Below, one piece after another: positions 46,366 to 51,960 of a stretch of 64,000 nt of DNA. The notes beneath the pieces were generated by a model. That model saw nothing but the letters and a program-made list of their open reading frames with translations. It was not told where the DNA came from and made no database searches. The stretch is from Nakamurella flava (lineage in GTDB: Bacteria > Actinomycetota > Actinomycetes > Mycobacteriales > Nakamurellaceae), in NCBI RefSeq assembly GCF_005298075.1, contig NZ_SZZH01000001.1, positions 930,001 to 994,000 on the forward strand. Reading direction: 5' to 3'. Position numbers and translations under genes: made by a program. Position 1 is the stretch's first letter; each line of letters opens with the position of its first letter.

Positions 46366-46405
46366 GCTGACGGTACCGATCCGTCCGTCAGCTGATCGCG
46401 TCGGC

Positions 46406-46443
46406 AGCCCTCCACCCGTCCCCTCCCGGACGGGCGGGGGGCT
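46406..46443 (+). terminator. Hairpin between tal and pgl
   Basis: A 16-bp stem with one wobble and one mismatch (46406-46421 with 46428-46443) and a 6-nt loop. No proper U-tract, so attenuation rather than full termination is likely. Confidence 0.5.
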
Positions 46444-46486
46444 GTTCGCATCCCCCGCTCGTTCCTCCCAGCCCGAAGGACACCCC

Positions 46487-47227
46487 GTGAGCGACACCGA
46501 GATCCGCCTGCACGCCGACGAGACCGAGCTGGCCGCCGCCACCGCGGCCCGGCTGATCACCACCCTGGCCGACCTGCAGGCCGACGGCCGCGTCCCCGTC
46601 GTCGCGCTGACCGGCGGTGGGGTGGGCACCGAGATGCTGCGCCAGGTCGCGCAGTCCGCCGCCCGCGGCACCGTCGACTGGCGCCGGGTCGAGATCTTCT
46701 GGGGCGATGAGCGTTTCGTCCCCGGCGATTCCGACGACCGGAACGCCAAGGGGGCCTACGAGGCGCTGCTGGACCGGGTGGACGTCGACCCGACCCGGGT
46801 GCACGAGATGGCTCCGTCGGACGGCGACTTCGGTGATGACCCGGACGCTGCGGCCGCCGCCTACGCCGAGATCGTCGCCGGCATCGACGCTTTCGACATC
46901 GTCATGCTCGGCATGGGCGGGGAGGGCCACGTCGCGTCGGTGTTCCCCGACTCCCCCGCCGTGCACGACACCCGCTCGGTGGTGGCGGTGCGGGACTGCC
47001 CGAAGCCGCCGCCGACCCGCATCTCGCTGACCCTTCCGACCATCCGCACCGCCGACCAGGTCTGGATGATCGTCAGCGGCGCGGCCAAGGCGGAGGCCGT
47101 CGGCCGGGCCGTCGGCGGGGCGTCCGAGGTGGACGTGCCCGCGGCCGGCGCGACCGGCCGGGTCCGCACCCTGTGGCTGTTGGACCGGGCCGCCGCGGCG
47201 GAACTTCCCGGGGAGGCTGCGTCCTGA
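46487..47227 (+). CDS. pgl: 6-phosphogluconolactonase
   Basis: Hydrolyses 6-phosphogluconolactone in the oxidative pentose phosphate pathway. At 246 aa with VVALTGGGVGTEML at about 40, WRRVEIFWGDERFVPGDSDDRN at about 66-87, and FDIVMLGMGGEGHVASVFP at about 138, all typical of the DevB/Pgl type. GTG at 46487 has GAAGGA at 6 nt. In mycobacteria zwf and opcA lie between tal and this gene; here they are absent. Confidence 0.96.
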   Translation: MSDTEIRLHADETELAAATAARLITTLADLQADGRVPVVALTGGGVGTEMLRQVAQSAARGTVDWRRVEIFWGDERFVPGDSDDRNAKGAYEALLDRVDVDPTRVHEMAPSDGDFGDDPDAAAAAYAEIVAGIDAFDIVMLGMGGEGHVASVFPDSPAVHDTRSVVAVRDCPKPPPTRISLTLPTIRTADQVWMIVSGAAKAEAVGRAVGGASEVDVPAAGATGRVRTLWLLDRAAAAELPGEAAS

Positions 47228-48237
47228 AGGTGGCGATGCTCGGTCCGGTGGCCTGGCGGACCCCGCCCCGGCATTACGGCCCCTGGGAGCAGGTCACCGG
47301 TCTGCTCACCGAGGGGCTGGTCGCGGCCGGGGTGGACGTCACCCTGTTCGCCACCCTGGACTCGCTGACCACCGCGGAGCTGGACGGCGTCTGCCCCCGC
47401 GGGTACGCCGAGGACCCGTCGGTCGACGGGCGGATCGCCGAGGCCCGGCACACCGCCCACGCCCTGGCCCGGGCCGGCGAGTTCGACCTGGTGCACAATC
47501 AGATGGACTGGTTGCCGCTGACCTTCGCCGGCCTGATCACCCCGCCGATGGTGACTACCATCCACGGCTTCTCCGGCCCGGCGATCCTGCCGGCCTACCA
47601 GGCGTCGACGTCGGCGTACGTGTCGATCTCGGACGCCGACCGGTCCCCGGATCTGGACTACCTGGCGACCGTCCACCACGGCCTCGATCTGACCGCCCTG
47701 CCGGTCGACCTGGCCGGTGGGGACGACCTGGTGGTGTTCGGTCGCATCCACCCGGACAAGGGGGTGGCCGAGGCCATCGCCATCGCGCGGGCCGCCGGCC
47801 GGCGACTGACCATCTGCGGGATCGTGCAGGATCAGCGGTACTTCGAGGAGCAGGTCGCTCCGCACGTCGACGGCGACCGGGTCCGCTACCTGGGGTCGGT
47901 CGGGCCTGACCGGCGGGCCGAGATCCTCGGCGGGGCCGGCGTACTGCTGCACCCGATCGCGTTCGCCGAACCCTTCGGCCTGTCGGTGGCCGAGTCGATG
48001 GCCTGCGGTACCCCCGTCGTCGCGTTCCGGCGCGGGTCGATGCCCGAGGTGGTCGACGACGGGGTGACCGGGTTCCTGGTCGACGACGTCGCCGGGGCGG
48101 TCGCGGCGGTGCCGGCCGCCGCGGCCCTGGACCGCCGCGCGGTGGCCGCGCGCGCCCGGGAACGGTTCAGCGCGCAGCGGATGGTGGCGGACTACCTGCG
48201 GGTCTACGAGCGGTTGCTTTCCGGTTCGTCCGGCTGA
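47224..48237 (+). CDS. Glycosyltransferase family 4, probable CTG start
   Basis: A 337-aa retaining glycosyltransferase. N-terminal acceptor domain with VAMLGPVAWRTPPRHYGPWE, family-like DLVHNQMDWLPL and TIHGF. The C-terminal nucleotide-sugar domain has VVFGRIHPDKGVAEAIAIA and the conserved EPFGLSVAESMACGTPVVAFRRGSMPE at about 251-277. The expected start M-[K/R]-V-A-M-L-G is encoded CTG AAG GTG GCG ATG, so I place the start at the CTG, which overlaps the pgl TGA as CTGA and has GGGGAGG 7 nt upstream. GTG at 47230 is the fallback. The sugar is unknown. Its end overlaps the convergent GH130 gene by 34 nt. Confidence 0.88.
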   Translation: MKVAMLGPVAWRTPPRHYGPWEQVTGLLTEGLVAAGVDVTLFATLDSLTTAELDGVCPRGYAEDPSVDGRIAEARHTAHALARAGEFDLVHNQMDWLPLTFAGLITPPMVTTIHGFSGPAILPAYQASTSAYVSISDADRSPDLDYLATVHHGLDLTALPVDLAGGDDLVVFGRIHPDKGVAEAIAIARAAGRRLTICGIVQDQRYFEEQVAPHVDGDRVRYLGSVGPDRRAEILGGAGVLLHPIAFAEPFGLSVAESMACGTPVVAFRRGSMPEVVDDGVTGFLVDDVAGAVAAVPAAAALDRRAVAARARERFSAQRMVADYLRVYERLLSGSSG

Positions 48238-49706
48238 CCGTCGCCGGTGAGGGCGGCCAGCAACCCGGCCAGATCCACCCAGGCGACGCCGATCCGGGCG
48301 TCGCCGATGCCGTACGGGATCCACAGCCGGCCGTCGTGGACGATGCCGCCGCAGGAGTAGACGACGTTCGGCACGTAGCCGTCCCGTTCGTCCGCGTCCG
48401 GGCGCAGCAGGGGTTCACGGAGCCGGCCGATCACCCGGGTCGGGTCGTCAAGGTCGAGCAGGATCGCGCCCATGACGTACGTGCGCATCGGGCCGACCCC
48501 GTGGGTGAGCACGAGCCAGCCCGGCCCGGTCTCGATCGGCGGCCCGCAGTTGCCGACCTGGATCACTTCCCAGGGCTCGACCGGCGCGTGCGCGGTGACC
48601 GGGGACGACCAGCGGAACCCGTCGGCGGAACGGGCCAGGCTGATGGTCTCCCCGTCGGTGCGGCACAGGGCCAGGTGCTCGCCGCCGACGCGGCGTGGGA
48701 ACAGTGCCATCCCCTTGTTGGTGGCGGCCGGCCCGACCAAGGGCCCGGCCGCTAACCGCCGCAGGTCGGGGCTGGTCAGCAGGCGGGGGGCGATGTCCCG
48801 TCCGTCGTAGGCGGTGTAGGTCGCCCGGTACTCGACGCGGCGGTCGTCGTCGGTGAACCGGGTGAGTCGGGCGTCCTCCATCCCGTTGCTCTCCTGCGCC
48901 GCGTGCGGGAACAGCAGCCGCTGGCTCAGGTCGCTGTCGGTCGGGAACTCGATGGAGTACGCCGAGACCAGGGTCCGCCGGATGAGGTCGATGGTCGCCG
49001 GCGCCCCCGGCTGGGTGCGCAGCCGGGCCGGGATACCGGCCAGCGTGTGCTCGAAGTCCTGATCGGTGAACAGATCTGGTAGCGCGCCGAGGACCGCCGC
49101 GGTGACGGCGTCGACACCGTCGTGTTCGGCCAGCGAGGTGCGCAACCGGGCGCGTGACCAGATGGCCTCGGCGGTGCGACCGGACACGACTGGGCGGCGC
49201 CGGGGCCCGAACGTCCAGCGGGGGCCCGGTCCGACGATCGCGTCGACGAAGGCGATCGAGGAGATATGCCCCTCGCCGATGGCGCGCAGGCTCACCGCGA
49301 CCCGCAGCTGCCCCGGGAGGAGTCCGTCCTGGTCGGGATGGGCGACGGCGCTCGGATTGCACAGGGCCGCGGCCTCGGTGGCGTACTCGGCGGTCAGCGC
49401 GGCGCCCAGCAGGACCGTGCGGGCCGCGCTGAGCGGGGCTCCCCCACCGACCTGCCCGGCGACGAGCGCCGCATTGGCCCGCACCGCGCCGGCCAGGTCG
49501 TGACCGCGTCCGGCGAACTCGACGATCACCCTGGCCGCGAGCCGGTCCACCTCGGGTTCGTCGATGGCCATCACCCGGTCGGCGATGGCCTGCAGCCGGG
49601 ATCGCCCCGGGGTGGCCGATCCTCCGGGGGCGAACAGCCGGGTCAGCACCCGGGACGGGTCGGGCCGCAGACCCGCGTCGACCCGGTGCGCCCGGACCGC
49701 GGTCAC
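48204..49706 (-). CDS. GH130-family glycoside phosphorylase, long form
   Basis: A 500-aa protein whose C-terminal 300 residues carry the GH130 five-bladed propeller: the catalytic-Asp motif is SNGMEDARLTRF, then a phosphate-site-like ATNKGMALFPRRV, and DGYVPNVVYSCGGIVHDGRLWIPYG at the end. GH130 enzymes reversibly phosphorolyse beta-mannosides; the exact linkage is not readable. About 170 N-terminal residues (VDRLAARVIVEFAGRG region) exceed the usual size and look helical. GTG at 49706 overlaps the preceding stop as GTGA. Third gene of a coupled unit; the start is therefore firm. Confidence 0.85.
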   Translation of the reverse strand: MTAVRAHRVDAGLRPDPSRVLTRLFAPGGSATPGRSRLQAIADRVMAIDEPEVDRLAARVIVEFAGRGHDLAGAVRANAALVAGQVGGGAPLSAARTVLLGAALTAEYATEAAALCNPSAVAHPDQDGLLPGQLRVAVSLRAIGEGHISSIAFVDAIVGPGPRWTFGPRRRPVVSGRTAEAIWSRARLRTSLAEHDGVDAVTAAVLGALPDLFTDQDFEHTLAGIPARLRTQPGAPATIDLIRRTLVSAYSIEFPTDSDLSQRLLFPHAAQESNGMEDARLTRFTDDDRRVEYRATYTAYDGRDIAPRLLTSPDLRRLAAGPLVGPAATNKGMALFPRRVGGEHLALCRTDGETISLARSADGFRWSSPVTAHAPVEPWEVIQVGNCGPPIETGPGWLVLTHGVGPMRTYVMGAILLDLDDPTRVIGRLREPLLRPDADERDGYVPNVVYSCGGIVHDGRLWIPYGIGDARIGVAWVDLAGLLAALTGDGQPDEPESNRS

Positions 49707-50818
49707 GGCGTCACCGGCAGTGCGCAGGCCTGCTGGACGATCACCAGAGCGGCCACGGTGGACTCCGCCCCCTGGTTCTCGTTCCGTCCCGTGCGGGTCA
49801 GGCCGTCGAAACCGCCGCCGGTGTCCGGGTCGAGCATGATCGTCCGGGAGTCGTTGTCGCCCCACAGCCACCGCCGGGCGAGCTCGACCCCGACCAGCCA
49901 GCTCGCGTCTCCGGTGACCCGATGGGCGCTCGCGCAGGCGTCGGCCAGGGCGGCCACCTCCAACGGTTGCTGGTCGAACGCCGGTCCGACCTCACCCGGG
50001 CCGCGACCGCCGACCGGCGTCACGGAGAGCAGCCGGGCGCCGGTCCCAGCTCCGACCCGGTCGACCCGGCTCTCCACCCGCAACAGGAAATCGAGCAGGT
50101 CGCAGCCGCGAGCCGTGCCTGCGTCGTCGCCCAGGGCGTGCGCGGCGACGATGAGTGCCTCGGCGATGGCGGCGTTGGCGTACCCGAGTCGCGGTTCCGG
50201 CCAGGCCCACTGCGGGCCGGTCGGCGCCCATCGGCGTGACCATTCGAGGTAGTCGGTGAGCAACCCGCGGGCCGCCGCCTCGTCCGGGCGGGCGGTCAGC
50301 AACTCGGCCGCTCCCAGCGTGGCGAACGCGGTGGCCCGCAGGTCGGGCGATCGGCGGGCGGCGGCGCGGCGGAAGGCGTCGGCGGCCCGGTCACGGTCCG
50401 CGGGGTCCGGCAGGCGGGCGGCGGCGAACCCCAGGCCCCACAGCGCCCGACCCCACCAGTCGCCCAGACCCGGCTGGTCGGTCCACCGGCCGGTCACGTC
50501 CATCCGGTTGTGGCAGCGGCCGTCGTCGGCCACGGCCGCAACCGTGAATCCGAGATAGCGCCGGTGCAGTCCGATCAGCCTGGCGTCGGGCGCCGGTTCC
50601 CGGGCGGTGACCACCAACGCCCGGGCGACGTCGTCCACGCAGTAGCCGTGCTCGGGCCGGGGAACGGCGTACCGGGCGTGCTCGAACAGCCCGCGAGCGT
50701 CGGTCAACGCCGACAGATGGTCGAACACCGGACGCGCCCGGCGTTCCGGTGACCCGCAGGCCGCGGTGGGGACGGAGCGTCCGTGGTCGGCGACTGCCAC
50801 GAAACCGGGCAGCGTCAC
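49703..50818 (-). CDS. Unknown protein, six-hairpin glycosidase-like
   Basis: A 371-aa protein of helix-pair repeats with conserved-looking aromatic and acidic loops: EHGYCVDDVARALVV near residue 57, RMDVTGRWTDQPGLGDWWGRALWGLG near 105-130, and DPDTGGGFDGLTRTGRNENQGAES near the end. This pattern suits an (alpha/alpha)6 barrel such as six-hairpin glycosidases or phosphorylases. No catalytic assignment is possible. GTG at 50818 and the stop at 49703 both overlap neighbours as GTGA, tying it to a glycosyltransferase and a GH130. Confidence 0.7.
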   Translation of the reverse strand: MTLPGFVAVADHGRSVPTAACGSPERRARPVFDHLSALTDARGLFEHARYAVPRPEHGYCVDDVARALVVTAREPAPDARLIGLHRRYLGFTVAAVADDGRCHNRMDVTGRWTDQPGLGDWWGRALWGLGFAAARLPDPADRDRAADAFRRAAARRSPDLRATAFATLGAAELLTARPDEAAARGLLTDYLEWSRRWAPTGPQWAWPEPRLGYANAAIAEALIVAAHALGDDAGTARGCDLLDFLLRVESRVDRVGAGTGARLLSVTPVGGRGPGEVGPAFDQQPLEVAALADACASAHRVTGDASWLVGVELARRWLWGDNDSRTIMLDPDTGGGFDGLTRTGRNENQGAESTVAALVIVQQACALPVTP

Positions 50819-51960
50819 GCGGCCACCGTTTCCGCTGACGCGAGCAGACGCATCGCCACCTGCCGGTACTCGTCGGCCACGGCCGACCAGCGCAGACCGG
50901 GTGCGGCCGCGGCCGCCGTGCGGGCCATGGCCGCCGCGGCCGGGCGGTCGGTCAGCACGCGACGCAGGGCCGCGGCGATGTTCGCCGGGTCCCGTTGCGG
51001 GACCAGCACTCCCGCCCCGGTCGCGAGCAGTTCGATGGCATGGGGGAAGCGGGTGGCGACGACCGGTTTGCCGGCGGCGACGGCCTCGATGAGTACCCCG
51101 GAGGTGACCTGTTCGGTGGAGTCGTAGGGCAGCAGGACCACATCGGCGGAGCTGACCACCGCGGCCAGGGACGGGCCGTCCAGGTACCGGCCGTCCAGCT
51201 CGACGGTGTCACTCAGGTGCAGGTCGGCGGCCAGGTCGATCAGGCCCCGCCGGTAGACCTCGCCCTGGTGCGCCAGCACCTTTGGGTGGGTCTGCCCGAC
51301 CACCAGGTACCGCGGTGCCGGACGCAGGTCGCGCAGCTCGGCCATGGCCCGGACGGCCCACTCGATGCCCTTGCCCGGCCCCAGCAGGCCCCAGGTCAGC
51401 ACGGTGGGTCGGTGGGAGGGTCCCGGCCGAGCGGTGGGCCGCCCGCCGGCCGCCAGCAGGTCCGGCGCGCCGTGGGCGATGACGCTGACCTTGTCGGGAA
51501 CGACCCGGTAGCCGGCGAGGAGCCGACGGTGGGCGGTGTCGGTCATGCACACCACCGACCCGGCGATCTCGACCACAGCCTCCAGGACCTCCCGCTGGTG
51601 CGCGGAGGGGTCGGTCAGGACGGTGTGCAGGACCACGATGCTCGGCACGGTCAGGCCGGCCAGCAGAGTCAGCACCTCGTCACCGTCCGGGCCGCCGAAG
51701 ATGCCGAACTCGTGCTGGACGACCACGACGTCGCAGGCGTTCAGCCGGGGCAGGGAACGGGCCAGCGACACGGGGTCACCGGCGACGACGTCGCCGACCA
51801 CGTCGGGTCCGGCCGGGGGCTGCGGGCTCTCGAGGAGGCGGACCACTTGGGCGACGTCGCTGCCGGAGGCGGTCAAGGCGGACGACAGGGACGCGGTGAA
51901 CGTGGCCAGACCGCACTGGGTGGGCGGGTAGGTGCTGACAAAACCGAAGCGCAGGGACAT
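50815..51960 (-). CDS. Glycosyltransferase family 4
   Basis: A 381-aa GT-B glycosyltransferase: the N-domain opens FGFVSTYPPTQCGLATFTASLS, then VVVVQHEFGIFGG. The C-domain has VLTWGLLGPGKGIEWAVRAM, ELDGRYL and the family EX7E-like region EQVTSGVLIEAVAAGKPVVATRFPHAIELL at about 290-319. ATG at 51960 begins the fold directly; an AAAGGCG run about 11 nt upstream is a weak ribosome-binding site. First gene of the GT4/unknown/GH130 unit. Sugar and acceptor unknown; GDP-mannose is a guess from GH130. Confidence 0.88.
   Translation of the reverse strand: MSLRFGFVSTYPPTQCGLATFTASLSSALTASGSDVAQVVRLLESPQPPAGPDVVGDVVAGDPVSLARSLPRLNACDVVVVQHEFGIFGGPDGDEVLTLLAGLTVPSIVVLHTVLTDPSAHQREVLEAVVEIAGSVVCMTDTAHRRLLAGYRVVPDKVSVIAHGAPDLLAAGGRPTARPGPSHRPTVLTWGLLGPGKGIEWAVRAMAELRDLRPAPRYLVVGQTHPKVLAHQGEVYRRGLIDLAADLHLSDTVELDGRYLDGPSLAAVVSSADVVLLPYDSTEQVTSGVLIEAVAAGKPVVATRFPHAIELLATGAGVLVPQRDPANIAAALRRVLTDRPAAAAMARTAAAAAPGLRWSAVADEYRQVAMRLLASAETVAA

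What the first reader, a model, noticed from the sequence alone, without database searches (positions are those of the whole stretch)
47224..51960. Glycan module: facing GT4 genes with a six-hairpin-like protein and a long GH130 phosphorylase
Three minus-strand genes (GT4, unknown (alpha/alpha)6-like protein, GH130) are joined by two GTGA overlaps, so they are made together. A second GT4 follows pgl on the plus strand and overlaps the GH130 end by 34 nt. GH130 enzymes phosphorolyse beta-mannosides, so a path from intracellular glycan to sugar-1-phosphate next to pentose-phosphate genes is coherent. The middle protein has no assigned chemistry, and the GH130 has about 170 extra N-terminal residues. 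I infer an uncharacterised oligosaccharide synthesis/recycling system, possibly a storage or compatible-solute mannoside.
Basis: partly seen in the sequence, partly recalled or inferred. Interest (0 to 1): 0.7.

Follow-up and report, generated by a model that had tools for sequence, protein, structure and literature searches.

The report
Mobile mannoside synthesis-and-recycling gene module
Four neighbouring genes look like a transferable sugar-building and sugar-recycling kit, shared in part by many unrelated bacteria, with one protein family of unknown function and an unusual version of a mannose-handling enzyme.

Summary
The GT4 and the unknown protein (UNK) lie side by side or fused in 77 of 80 loci from at least five phyla, with a GH130 within 6 kb in 76 of 80. 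In 6 of 6 evaluable genus relatives pgl and mdh are neighbours; the window has exactly this four-gene unit between them, and one relative carries the same unit elsewhere, so the pentose-phosphate setting is incidental. The GH130 belongs to a long subfamily: catalytic Asp and a Lys tied to beta-1,2 specificity in 74 of 74, but Gln at a phosphate-site Lys/Arg column in 70 of 74. UNK has no Pfam family, many invariant residues and one solved homologue of no stated function. The plus-strand GT4 resembles glucosylsucrose synthase, a compatible-solute enzyme. A mannose-6-phosphate-isomerase-like gene lies just upstream in 37 of 69 loci. Best reading: cytosolic synthesis and phosphorolytic recycling of a small beta-mannoside, perhaps a reserve or stress solute. 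In 8 genomes GH94 replaces GH130, with several UNK residues lost.

The parts
47230..48237 (+). GTp: GT4 of the glucosylsucrose-synthase (alpha-1,2-glucosyltransferase) kind; alternative start CTG 47224
   Evidence: PDB 7fg9/7fga/8x3u E 5.8e-65; TeGSS Tyr18 and Arg179 aligned with Tyr and Arg; next to the triad in 4 relatives
48204..49706 (-). long GH130 (500 aa): E277-D278, K331, R349 kept; Q383, C387, E392, R408 are subfamily marks
   Evidence: PF04041 89.5 bits; the four best profile matches are beta-1,2-mannan enzymes; 74-sequence alignment
49703..50818 (-). UNK (371 aa): unnamed family, invariants include H47 Y59 D63 R66 D120 D282 Q284 D338 N348 E352
   Evidence: no Pfam or NCBIfam match; profile match to solved 7tem at 1.9e-22; 53-sequence alignment
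50815..51960 (-). GTm: GT4, near-constant partner of UNK, in one frame with it in many genomes
50815..50818 (-). GTGA overlap GTm/UNK
49703..49706 (-). GTGA overlap UNK/GH130
48204..48237 (.). 34-nt tail-to-tail overlap of GTp and GH130; aligned ends also overlap tail to tail in L131 and L133
47228..52342 (.). inserted unit (5,115 bp) between pgl (ends 47227) and mdh (ATG 52343), which are neighbours in relatives

Best explanation
A mobile module for making and recycling a small intracellular mannoside. GTm, a GT4 paired with UNK, and in the four-gene version also GTp, build an alpha-linked core oligosaccharide from nucleotide sugars (probably GDP-mannose for GTm and UDP-glucose for GTp). The long GH130 adds or removes beta-1,2-mannosyl units with mannose-1-phosphate as donor or product. 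UNK, a helical glycosidase-like enzyme working next to GTm, trims or releases the same glycan. Man-1-P and Man-6-P link the pool to central metabolism. The role would be a reserve or a stress solute. Shown: gene unit, co-occurrence, shared frames, insertion, conserved residues, mannose-phosphate genes in the operon of many proteobacteria. Inferred: donors, linkage, direction of the GH130 reaction, UNK's fold and chemistry, role.
For: Co-occurrence: GTm beside or fused to UNK in 77 of 80 loci, GH130 in 76 of 80 (72 long, 4 short); in 61 relatives all 6 genomes with the long GH130 have UNK, against 3 of the other 55 (Fisher p 1.5e-6). Moved as one unit. Beta-1,2 preference: the four best GH130 profile matches are beta-1,2-mannan enzymes, and the Lys that PMC4599007 (section 20) ties to beta-1,2 specificity maps, by my alignment, to K331, kept in 74 of 74. 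Mannose pathway: an isomerase-like gene just upstream of GTm in 37 of 69 loci with room, annotated as class I mannose-6-phosphate isomerase on three plasmids; guanylyltransferase in 4 of 94 loci and phosphomannomutase in 1 of 94 (that one, L043, has the same UNK as plasmid L095). Solute link: GTp's closest solved relative makes glucosylsucrose, raised under salt or heat stress. Cytosolic: a crude hydropathy scan shows no obvious membrane helix (highest 19-residue mean 2.0, in GTm). Two of seven inspected plasmid copies lie near chaperone genes.
Against: Q383 replaces a basic phosphate-site residue in 70 of 74, so phosphorolysis is not assured. No enzyme of the module has been assayed. GTm's donor is unknown; its best PDB matches (6kih, sucrose-phosphate synthase, 2.2e-11; 3c4q 6.5e-10) are only generic. 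The isomerase-like gene is absent in 30 of 69 loci, is seen only in Pseudomonadota or unassigned loci, and its one Pfam-scanned member falls just under the Pfam cut-off (20.2 of 22 bits). EcfG promoter search: 3 of 53. In 8 genomes GTm-UNK goes with GH94 and no GH130. L018 has GTp, GTm and UNK but no GH130 in 17 kb; lone UNK genes exist (L027, L035, G035).
Confidence: 0.5

Rival explanations
1. A scavenging pathway: imported beta-mannosides are phosphorolysed by GH130 to Man-1-P, which feeds GDP-Man and the GTs, as proposed for Thermoanaerobacter.
For: PMC4264767 (passages) describes GH130, a GDP-Man pyrophosphorylase and a GT4 in one cluster with an ABC transporter; isomerase and mutase would serve this direction as well.
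Against: Among the neighbour clusters that I annotated, an ABC ATPase recurs in only 5 loci and an alpha-amylase family gene in 9 Bosea-like loci of 94; most clusters were not annotated. The unit that moved into the window has no transporter.
Confidence: 0.15
2. Part of an envelope polysaccharide or glycolipid pathway, with GH130 setting or removing a beta-1,2-mannose cap.
For: Two GT4s; beta-1,2-mannose occurs in O-antigens of several bacteria (PMC4264767, passages); the lone UNK of L035 has a PMT_2 gene and a polysaccharide pyruvyl transferase gene downstream.
Against: None of the four genes is a flippase, polymerase or exporter, and a crude hydropathy scan shows no membrane helix; the moved unit holds only these four genes.
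Confidence: 0.15
3. The long GH130 is not a phosphorylase but a GDP-mannose-dependent beta-mannosyltransferase or a hydrolase.
For: Q383 in place of Lys/Arg in 70 of 74, with C387, E392 and R408 nearly or fully invariant, while 17 of 20 other GH130 stretches in the same set of loci keep Lys or Arg; GT108 is a precedent for dual activity on the same fold (PMC8950772, passages).
Against: R349 and K331 are kept in 74 of 74; the hydrolases of PMC4599007 carry acidic residues in place of the basic ones, not Gln; no GT108 chain is among the 19 profile matches at E up to 1.
Confidence: 0.2

Closest known systems
GH130 beta-1,2-mannan phosphorylases (Teth514_1788/1789, Lin0857) and Uhgb_MS
   Same: Propeller domain match, Glu-Asp pair, aligned Lys, one aligned phosphate-site Arg
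   Different: Extra N-terminal residues and a variable stretch before residue 260, Gln at a phosphate-site column, extra Arg and Cys; partner GT4-UNK
Leishmania mannogen system (GT108)
   Same: Beta-1,2-mannan reserve handled by propeller enzymes with transferase and phosphorylase activity (PMC8950772, passages)
   Different: No GT108 chain matched the long GH130 profile at E up to 1; the passages read mention no GT4-UNK unit
Glucosylsucrose synthase TeGSS (tll1591)
   Same: GTp: matched over 332 residues, Tyr18 and Arg179 aligned
   Different: TeGSS lies beside the sucrose-phosphate synthase gene; GTp lies beside GH130 and GTm-UNK; acceptor unknown
Thermoanaerobacter GH130/GDP-Man cluster (PMC4264767, passages)
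   Same: GH130 with a GT4 and a Man-1-P guanylyltransferase
   Different: Has an ABC transporter and a GH5; its two hypothetical proteins were not compared with UNK
PDB 7tem, exported protein YPO2471 (depositors' name)
   Same: Only convincing solved relative of UNK, 1.9e-22 with the profile
   Different: Named an exported protein, 427 aa, no function in the listing; no held paper names it

Membership tests
GH130 | Pfam PF04041 above curated cut-off | tested here: met
   89.5 bits against 26
GH130 | Invariant catalytic Asp | tested here: met
   D278 in 74 of 74
GH130 | Three basic phosphate-binding residues of phosphorylases | tested here: inconclusive
   R349 kept in 74 of 74; one Lys/Arg column is Gln in 70 of 74; the third residue was not mapped, and which residues bind phosphate is inferred from alignment
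GH130 | Lys of beta-1,2-mannose specificity | tested here: met
   K331 in 74 of 74; equivalence to BT3780 Lys199 inferred from spacing and the aligned Teth514 sequences
GH130 | Phosphorolysis of a beta-mannoside | not testable with these tools
   needs an assay
GT108 | Sequence match to the solved Leishmania enzyme | tested here: not met
   not among 19 profile matches at E up to 1
Glucosylsucrose synthase type GT4 (TeGSS) | Full-length similarity and Tyr18/Arg179 | tested here: met
   E 5.8e-65; residues aligned by my count
Glucosylsucrose synthase type GT4 (TeGSS) | Sucrose as acceptor | not testable with these tools
   needs an assay
(alpha/alpha)6 glycosidases (GH88 and others) for UNK | Pfam match above cut-off | tested here: not met
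   P0003 matches no family; of 53 members one (L032) matches GH88 at 27.8 bits, just over its cut-off of 26.6
(alpha/alpha)6 glycosidases (GH88 and others) for UNK | Six-hairpin fold | not tested
   structure prediction switched off

The most novel reading that the evidence does not exclude
A bacterial counterpart of mannogen: a horizontally moving pathway, spread over several phyla and found on 16 plasmids predicted to be conjugative, that makes an intracellular beta-1,2-mannoside on an alpha-linked primer. It would rest on a new carbohydrate-enzyme family (UNK) fused to its own glycosyltransferase and on a GH130 subfamily whose remodelled phosphate site (Gln383, Arg408) lets it use a donor other than mannose-1-phosphate.
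Probability: 0.22. Interest if true: 0.82.

Novelty: new variant of a known kind. Interest (0 to 1): 0.6.

Why it matters
If right, many soil and water bacteria share an unnoticed mannose-based reserve or protectant. The module gives a family with no Pfam name a defined partner and a testable substrate, and offers a natural set of GH130 phosphate-site variants to learn what separates phosphorylase, hydrolase and transferase. The fused GT4-UNK protein, one polypeptide with both domains, makes the test simple.

Tried and rejected
Pentose-phosphate coupling: rejected. I fetched the tal-pgl-mdh region of 7 of the 16 genus relatives; pgl and mdh are neighbours in the 6 where both were seen (in G010 the contig ends first), and the module lies away from tal in G002, G004 and G012.

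General stress promoter (EcfG motif) upstream in 53 loci, mostly alphaproteobacterial but with a few Gammaproteobacteria: 3 hits against about 0.5 expected from the rest of the loci. Two of the three lie just inside the called isomerase ORF. Counted as no support, although it is a small excess.

A sugar switch in UNK between GH130 and GH94 partners: first taken as a clean switch, then weakened. In the 8 loci where GH94 is next to the fused gene, H47, R66, D282 and Q284 are lost without a fixed replacement, which looks like relaxed constraint, and the 8 form one clade; G288, with GH94 2.7 kb from UNK, keeps H47, R66, D282 and Q284. So the exchange of phosphorylase is shown as gene order in one lineage, not as a repeated event.

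Phages as carriers: no match to UNK in 50,697 records at E up to 1e-5. Chaperone neighbours on plasmids: 2 of 7 inspected, with no control region, so only a hint.

Literature: ten searches ran. I saw listings, and passages or sections of five papers (PMC8950772, PMC4599007, PMC4264767, PMC10619541, PMC9909042). Nothing seen describes a GT4-UNK-GH130 unit; subscription papers are not held, and the GH130 network study by Li and colleagues is known to me here only through passages of the review PMC8950772, so its clusters were not compared.
Full report
Observation. Both GTGA overlaps and the 34-nt tail-to-tail overlap are present. Pfam finds GT4 domains in both transferases and Glyco_hydro_130 in residues 264-483 of the GH130; UNK matches nothing in Pfam or NCBIfam at E up to 0.1.

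The module elsewhere. A scan of genome contigs seeded with UNK found 106 relatives, of which the best 80 were kept. With family profiles, GTm is beside or fused to UNK in 77 of 80 (L022 shows a fragment at its contig edge by tblastn; L027 and L035 have none). A long GH130 lies within 6 kb in 72, a short GH130 in 4, none in 4 (L018, L027, L032, L035; L032 ends soon after UNK). By the records' taxonomy the 80 are Pseudomonadota 51, Actinomycetota 8, Planctomycetota 6, Verrucomicrobiota 3, Bacteroidota 3, Thermoplasmatota 1, unassigned 8. The archaeal case is one short metagenome contig and may be misbinned. In 68 of 80 GTm and UNK share one open reading frame, and the seven plasmid regions that I opened annotate one GT4 protein over this stretch, followed by a GH130 protein. 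Of 72,556 plasmid records 27 match UNK, 16 of them predicted conjugative.

Sample not seeded by gene order. Of 296 genomes drawn from the phylum, 34 hold UNK at E up to 1e-30. I fetched wider regions for 32; the other two are the window's genome and G035 (region). GTm is directly upstream or fused in 29 of 32; in the other 3 UNK starts within 450 nt of the contig's start, so that upstream DNA is missing. G035 has UNK without GTm, GH130 or GH94 in 18 kb. By coordinates, a PF04041 gene lies within about 3.5 kb of UNK in 20 of 34. Eight others (G090, G114, G147, G157, G189, G274, G306, G338) have no PF04041 match in the genome; in all eight a GH94 gene follows the fused GT4-UNK by 131 to 767 nt by profile match. 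Pfam's GH94 model is over its cut-off at that place in 7 of the 8; in G189 the contig ends inside the gene and the fragment is just under the cut-off. Only 26 of 296 genomes have any GH94 match. G288 has a GH94 2.7 kb from UNK. The last four, G150, G171, G214 and G320, lie on short contigs or at contig starts; in the 2 to 6 kb downstream that could be seen there is no GH130 or GH94 next to UNK, so they count as misses.

Relatives. In 61 genomes (own, genus and order), UNK is found at E up to 1e-38 in 9, the long GH130 below 1e-100 in 6 (16 have any GH130 match), GTp below 1e-100 in 6. All 6 long-GH130 genomes have UNK beside it, against UNK in 3 of the other 55 (Fisher p 1.5e-6). GTp lies next to the triad in G002, G024 and G027 (tail to tail with GH130) and in G051 (upstream of GTm); in G009 it sits beside a short GH130, and G009's UNK is at another contig's start with no GH130 in the following 10 kb; G012 has the triad without GTp. 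G004, of the same genus, has GTm and UNK in one frame with a short GH130. GTp is within 6 kb of UNK in 15 of the 80 and 7 of the 32 loci.

Insertion. In G001, G002, G004, G006, G008 and G013, the aligned ends of pgl and mdh lie 143 to 603 bp apart; in G010 the contig ends before mdh. In the window they are 5,115 bp apart and the space holds the four-gene unit. G002 carries the same unit about 1.2 Mb from its pgl. The unit therefore appears to move as a block, and its place beside pentose-phosphate genes says nothing about function.

GH130. I aligned 74 long GH130 sequences (those matching nearly the whole window protein). E277, D278, R280, K331 and R349 are in 74 of 74. Position 383, where the solved beta-1,2 phosphorylases have Arg or Lys (RVG, KIG), is Gln in 70 of 74. 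C387, E392 and R408 are in 73, 73 and 74 of 74. Of 21 other GH130 stretches in the loci, 20 cover this column: 17 have Lys or Arg, one Ser (L204), two Gly (L185, L022). PMC4599007 (passages and section 20 seen) says that phosphorylases hold phosphate with three basic residues, that hydrolases lack them, and that a Lys (BT3780 Lys199) sets beta-1,2 specificity. Mapping that Lys to K331 and phosphate residues to R349 and Q383 is my inference from spacing and from the alignments. The four best enzymes in a PDB profile search are beta-1,2-mannan enzymes (9fj8 6.6e-47, 7fip 2.1e-45, 5b0p 1.4e-42, Uhgb_MS 6.2e-40; 5b0p's activity from the table in PMC8950772).

UNK. In 53 aligned sequences, all from GH130-type or partnerless loci, H47, Y59, D63, R66, N104, D120, R124, W206, Y213, D282, Q284, W317, N322, D338, N348, E352 and S353 are invariant; in the wider set several vary. 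The profile finds one convincing solved relative, 7tem, at 1.9e-22; the other six listed matches (0.039 and weaker: importins and 6xt4) look like chance. Of 53 members, one (L032) matches GH88 at 1.6e-6 and the C5-epimerase domain at 6e-5; other matches are weaker. These hints fit a helical barrel enzyme but do not show it. In a quick tree of 121 UNK sequences the partner class needs 7 changes in all, of which well-supported branches force only 3 for long and 3 for short GH130; the GH94 rows need one, with weak support (29). The 8 GH94-linked proteins have lost H47, R66, D282 and Q284 without a fixed replacement, while G288 and the short-GH130 lineage nearest in the tree keep them.

GTp and mannose genes. 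GTp matches TeGSS, glucosylsucrose synthase, at 5.8e-65; Tyr18 and Arg179, whose mutants had very low activity (PMC9909042, abstract and passages), align with Tyr and Arg in GTp (my count of residues). A mannose-6-phosphate-isomerase-like gene lies just upstream of GTm in 37 of 69 loci with room for it, elsewhere in 2, not found in 30; the 37 are Pseudomonadota or unassigned. Plasmid records name it class I mannose-6-phosphate isomerase, but the one member that I scanned is just under Pfam's cut-off. Man-1-P guanylyltransferase occurs in 4 of 94 loci and phosphomannomutase in 1 of 94; queries came from plasmid L095, and the phosphomannomutase locus L043 has the same UNK as L095. In L095 the order is guanylyltransferase/isomerase, isomerase, GT4-UNK, GH130, phosphomannomutase. 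The window's genome has two type I isomerase genes outside the module.

Mechanism. The simplest account is a cytosolic cycle: the transferases build an oligosaccharide from nucleotide sugars, GH130 adds or removes beta-1,2-mannose through Man-1-P, and UNK trims the product. The unit is shown; the chemistry is inferred. A stress role is only hinted at: GTp's relative makes a salt-stress solute, and 2 of 7 plasmid copies lie near chaperone genes, with no control; the promoter search gave no real support.

Verdict. A genuine, apparently mobile and widely shared module, not described in anything I could find in the open-access library, built from known enzyme kinds plus one unnamed family and an unusual GH130 subfamily.

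Noticed in passing
window 46366-46486: tal and pgl are 121 bp apart here, while 7 of 7 fetched relatives have a glucose-6-phosphate dehydrogenase-like gene between them (39-41% identical to one of three copies that this genome carries on other contigs): it is missing from this operon here.
   Followed up: partly
L191-L198: In 8 genomes a GH94 gene follows a fused GT4-UNK and no GH130 is found; UNK has lost several otherwise invariant residues.
   Followed up: partly
L095 and L213 (Sphingobium and Sphingomonas plasmids, predicted conjugative): The module sits within about 10 kb of chaperone genes (GroES/GroEL and Hsp20 in L095; DnaK, GrpE, DnaJ and Hsp20 in L213), like a transmissible stress island.
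   Followed up: partly
L052, L056, L062, L071, L072, L074, L077, L084, L087: In Bosea-like genomes a GTp gene lies 4-5 kb past UNK, downstream of GH130, and an alpha-amylase family gene (Pfam run on L052 only) precedes it.
   Followed up: no
L176 2941-8245: Two short GH130 genes, GTp, and UNK and GTm in one frame form one cluster; one of the GH130s has Arg at the column of the beta-1,2 Lys.
   Followed up: no
L035 2642-10060: The UNK here has no GTm or GH130; downstream are a PMT_2 mannosyltransferase-like gene and a polysaccharide pyruvyl transferase gene.
   Followed up: no
L215 10449-11582: An AGE family epimerase/isomerase gene follows GH130 in Rhizobium daejeonense, perhaps acting on the same sugar.
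   Followed up: no
G000:C1:998686-999141: A type I phosphomannose isomerase gene lies about 4.7 kb beyond the right end of the window.
   Followed up: no
L010, L011, L014: Open frames of about 700 aa weakly match the C-terminal end of UNK and, in L011 and L014, lie near another GH130: possibly a sister system.
   Followed up: no
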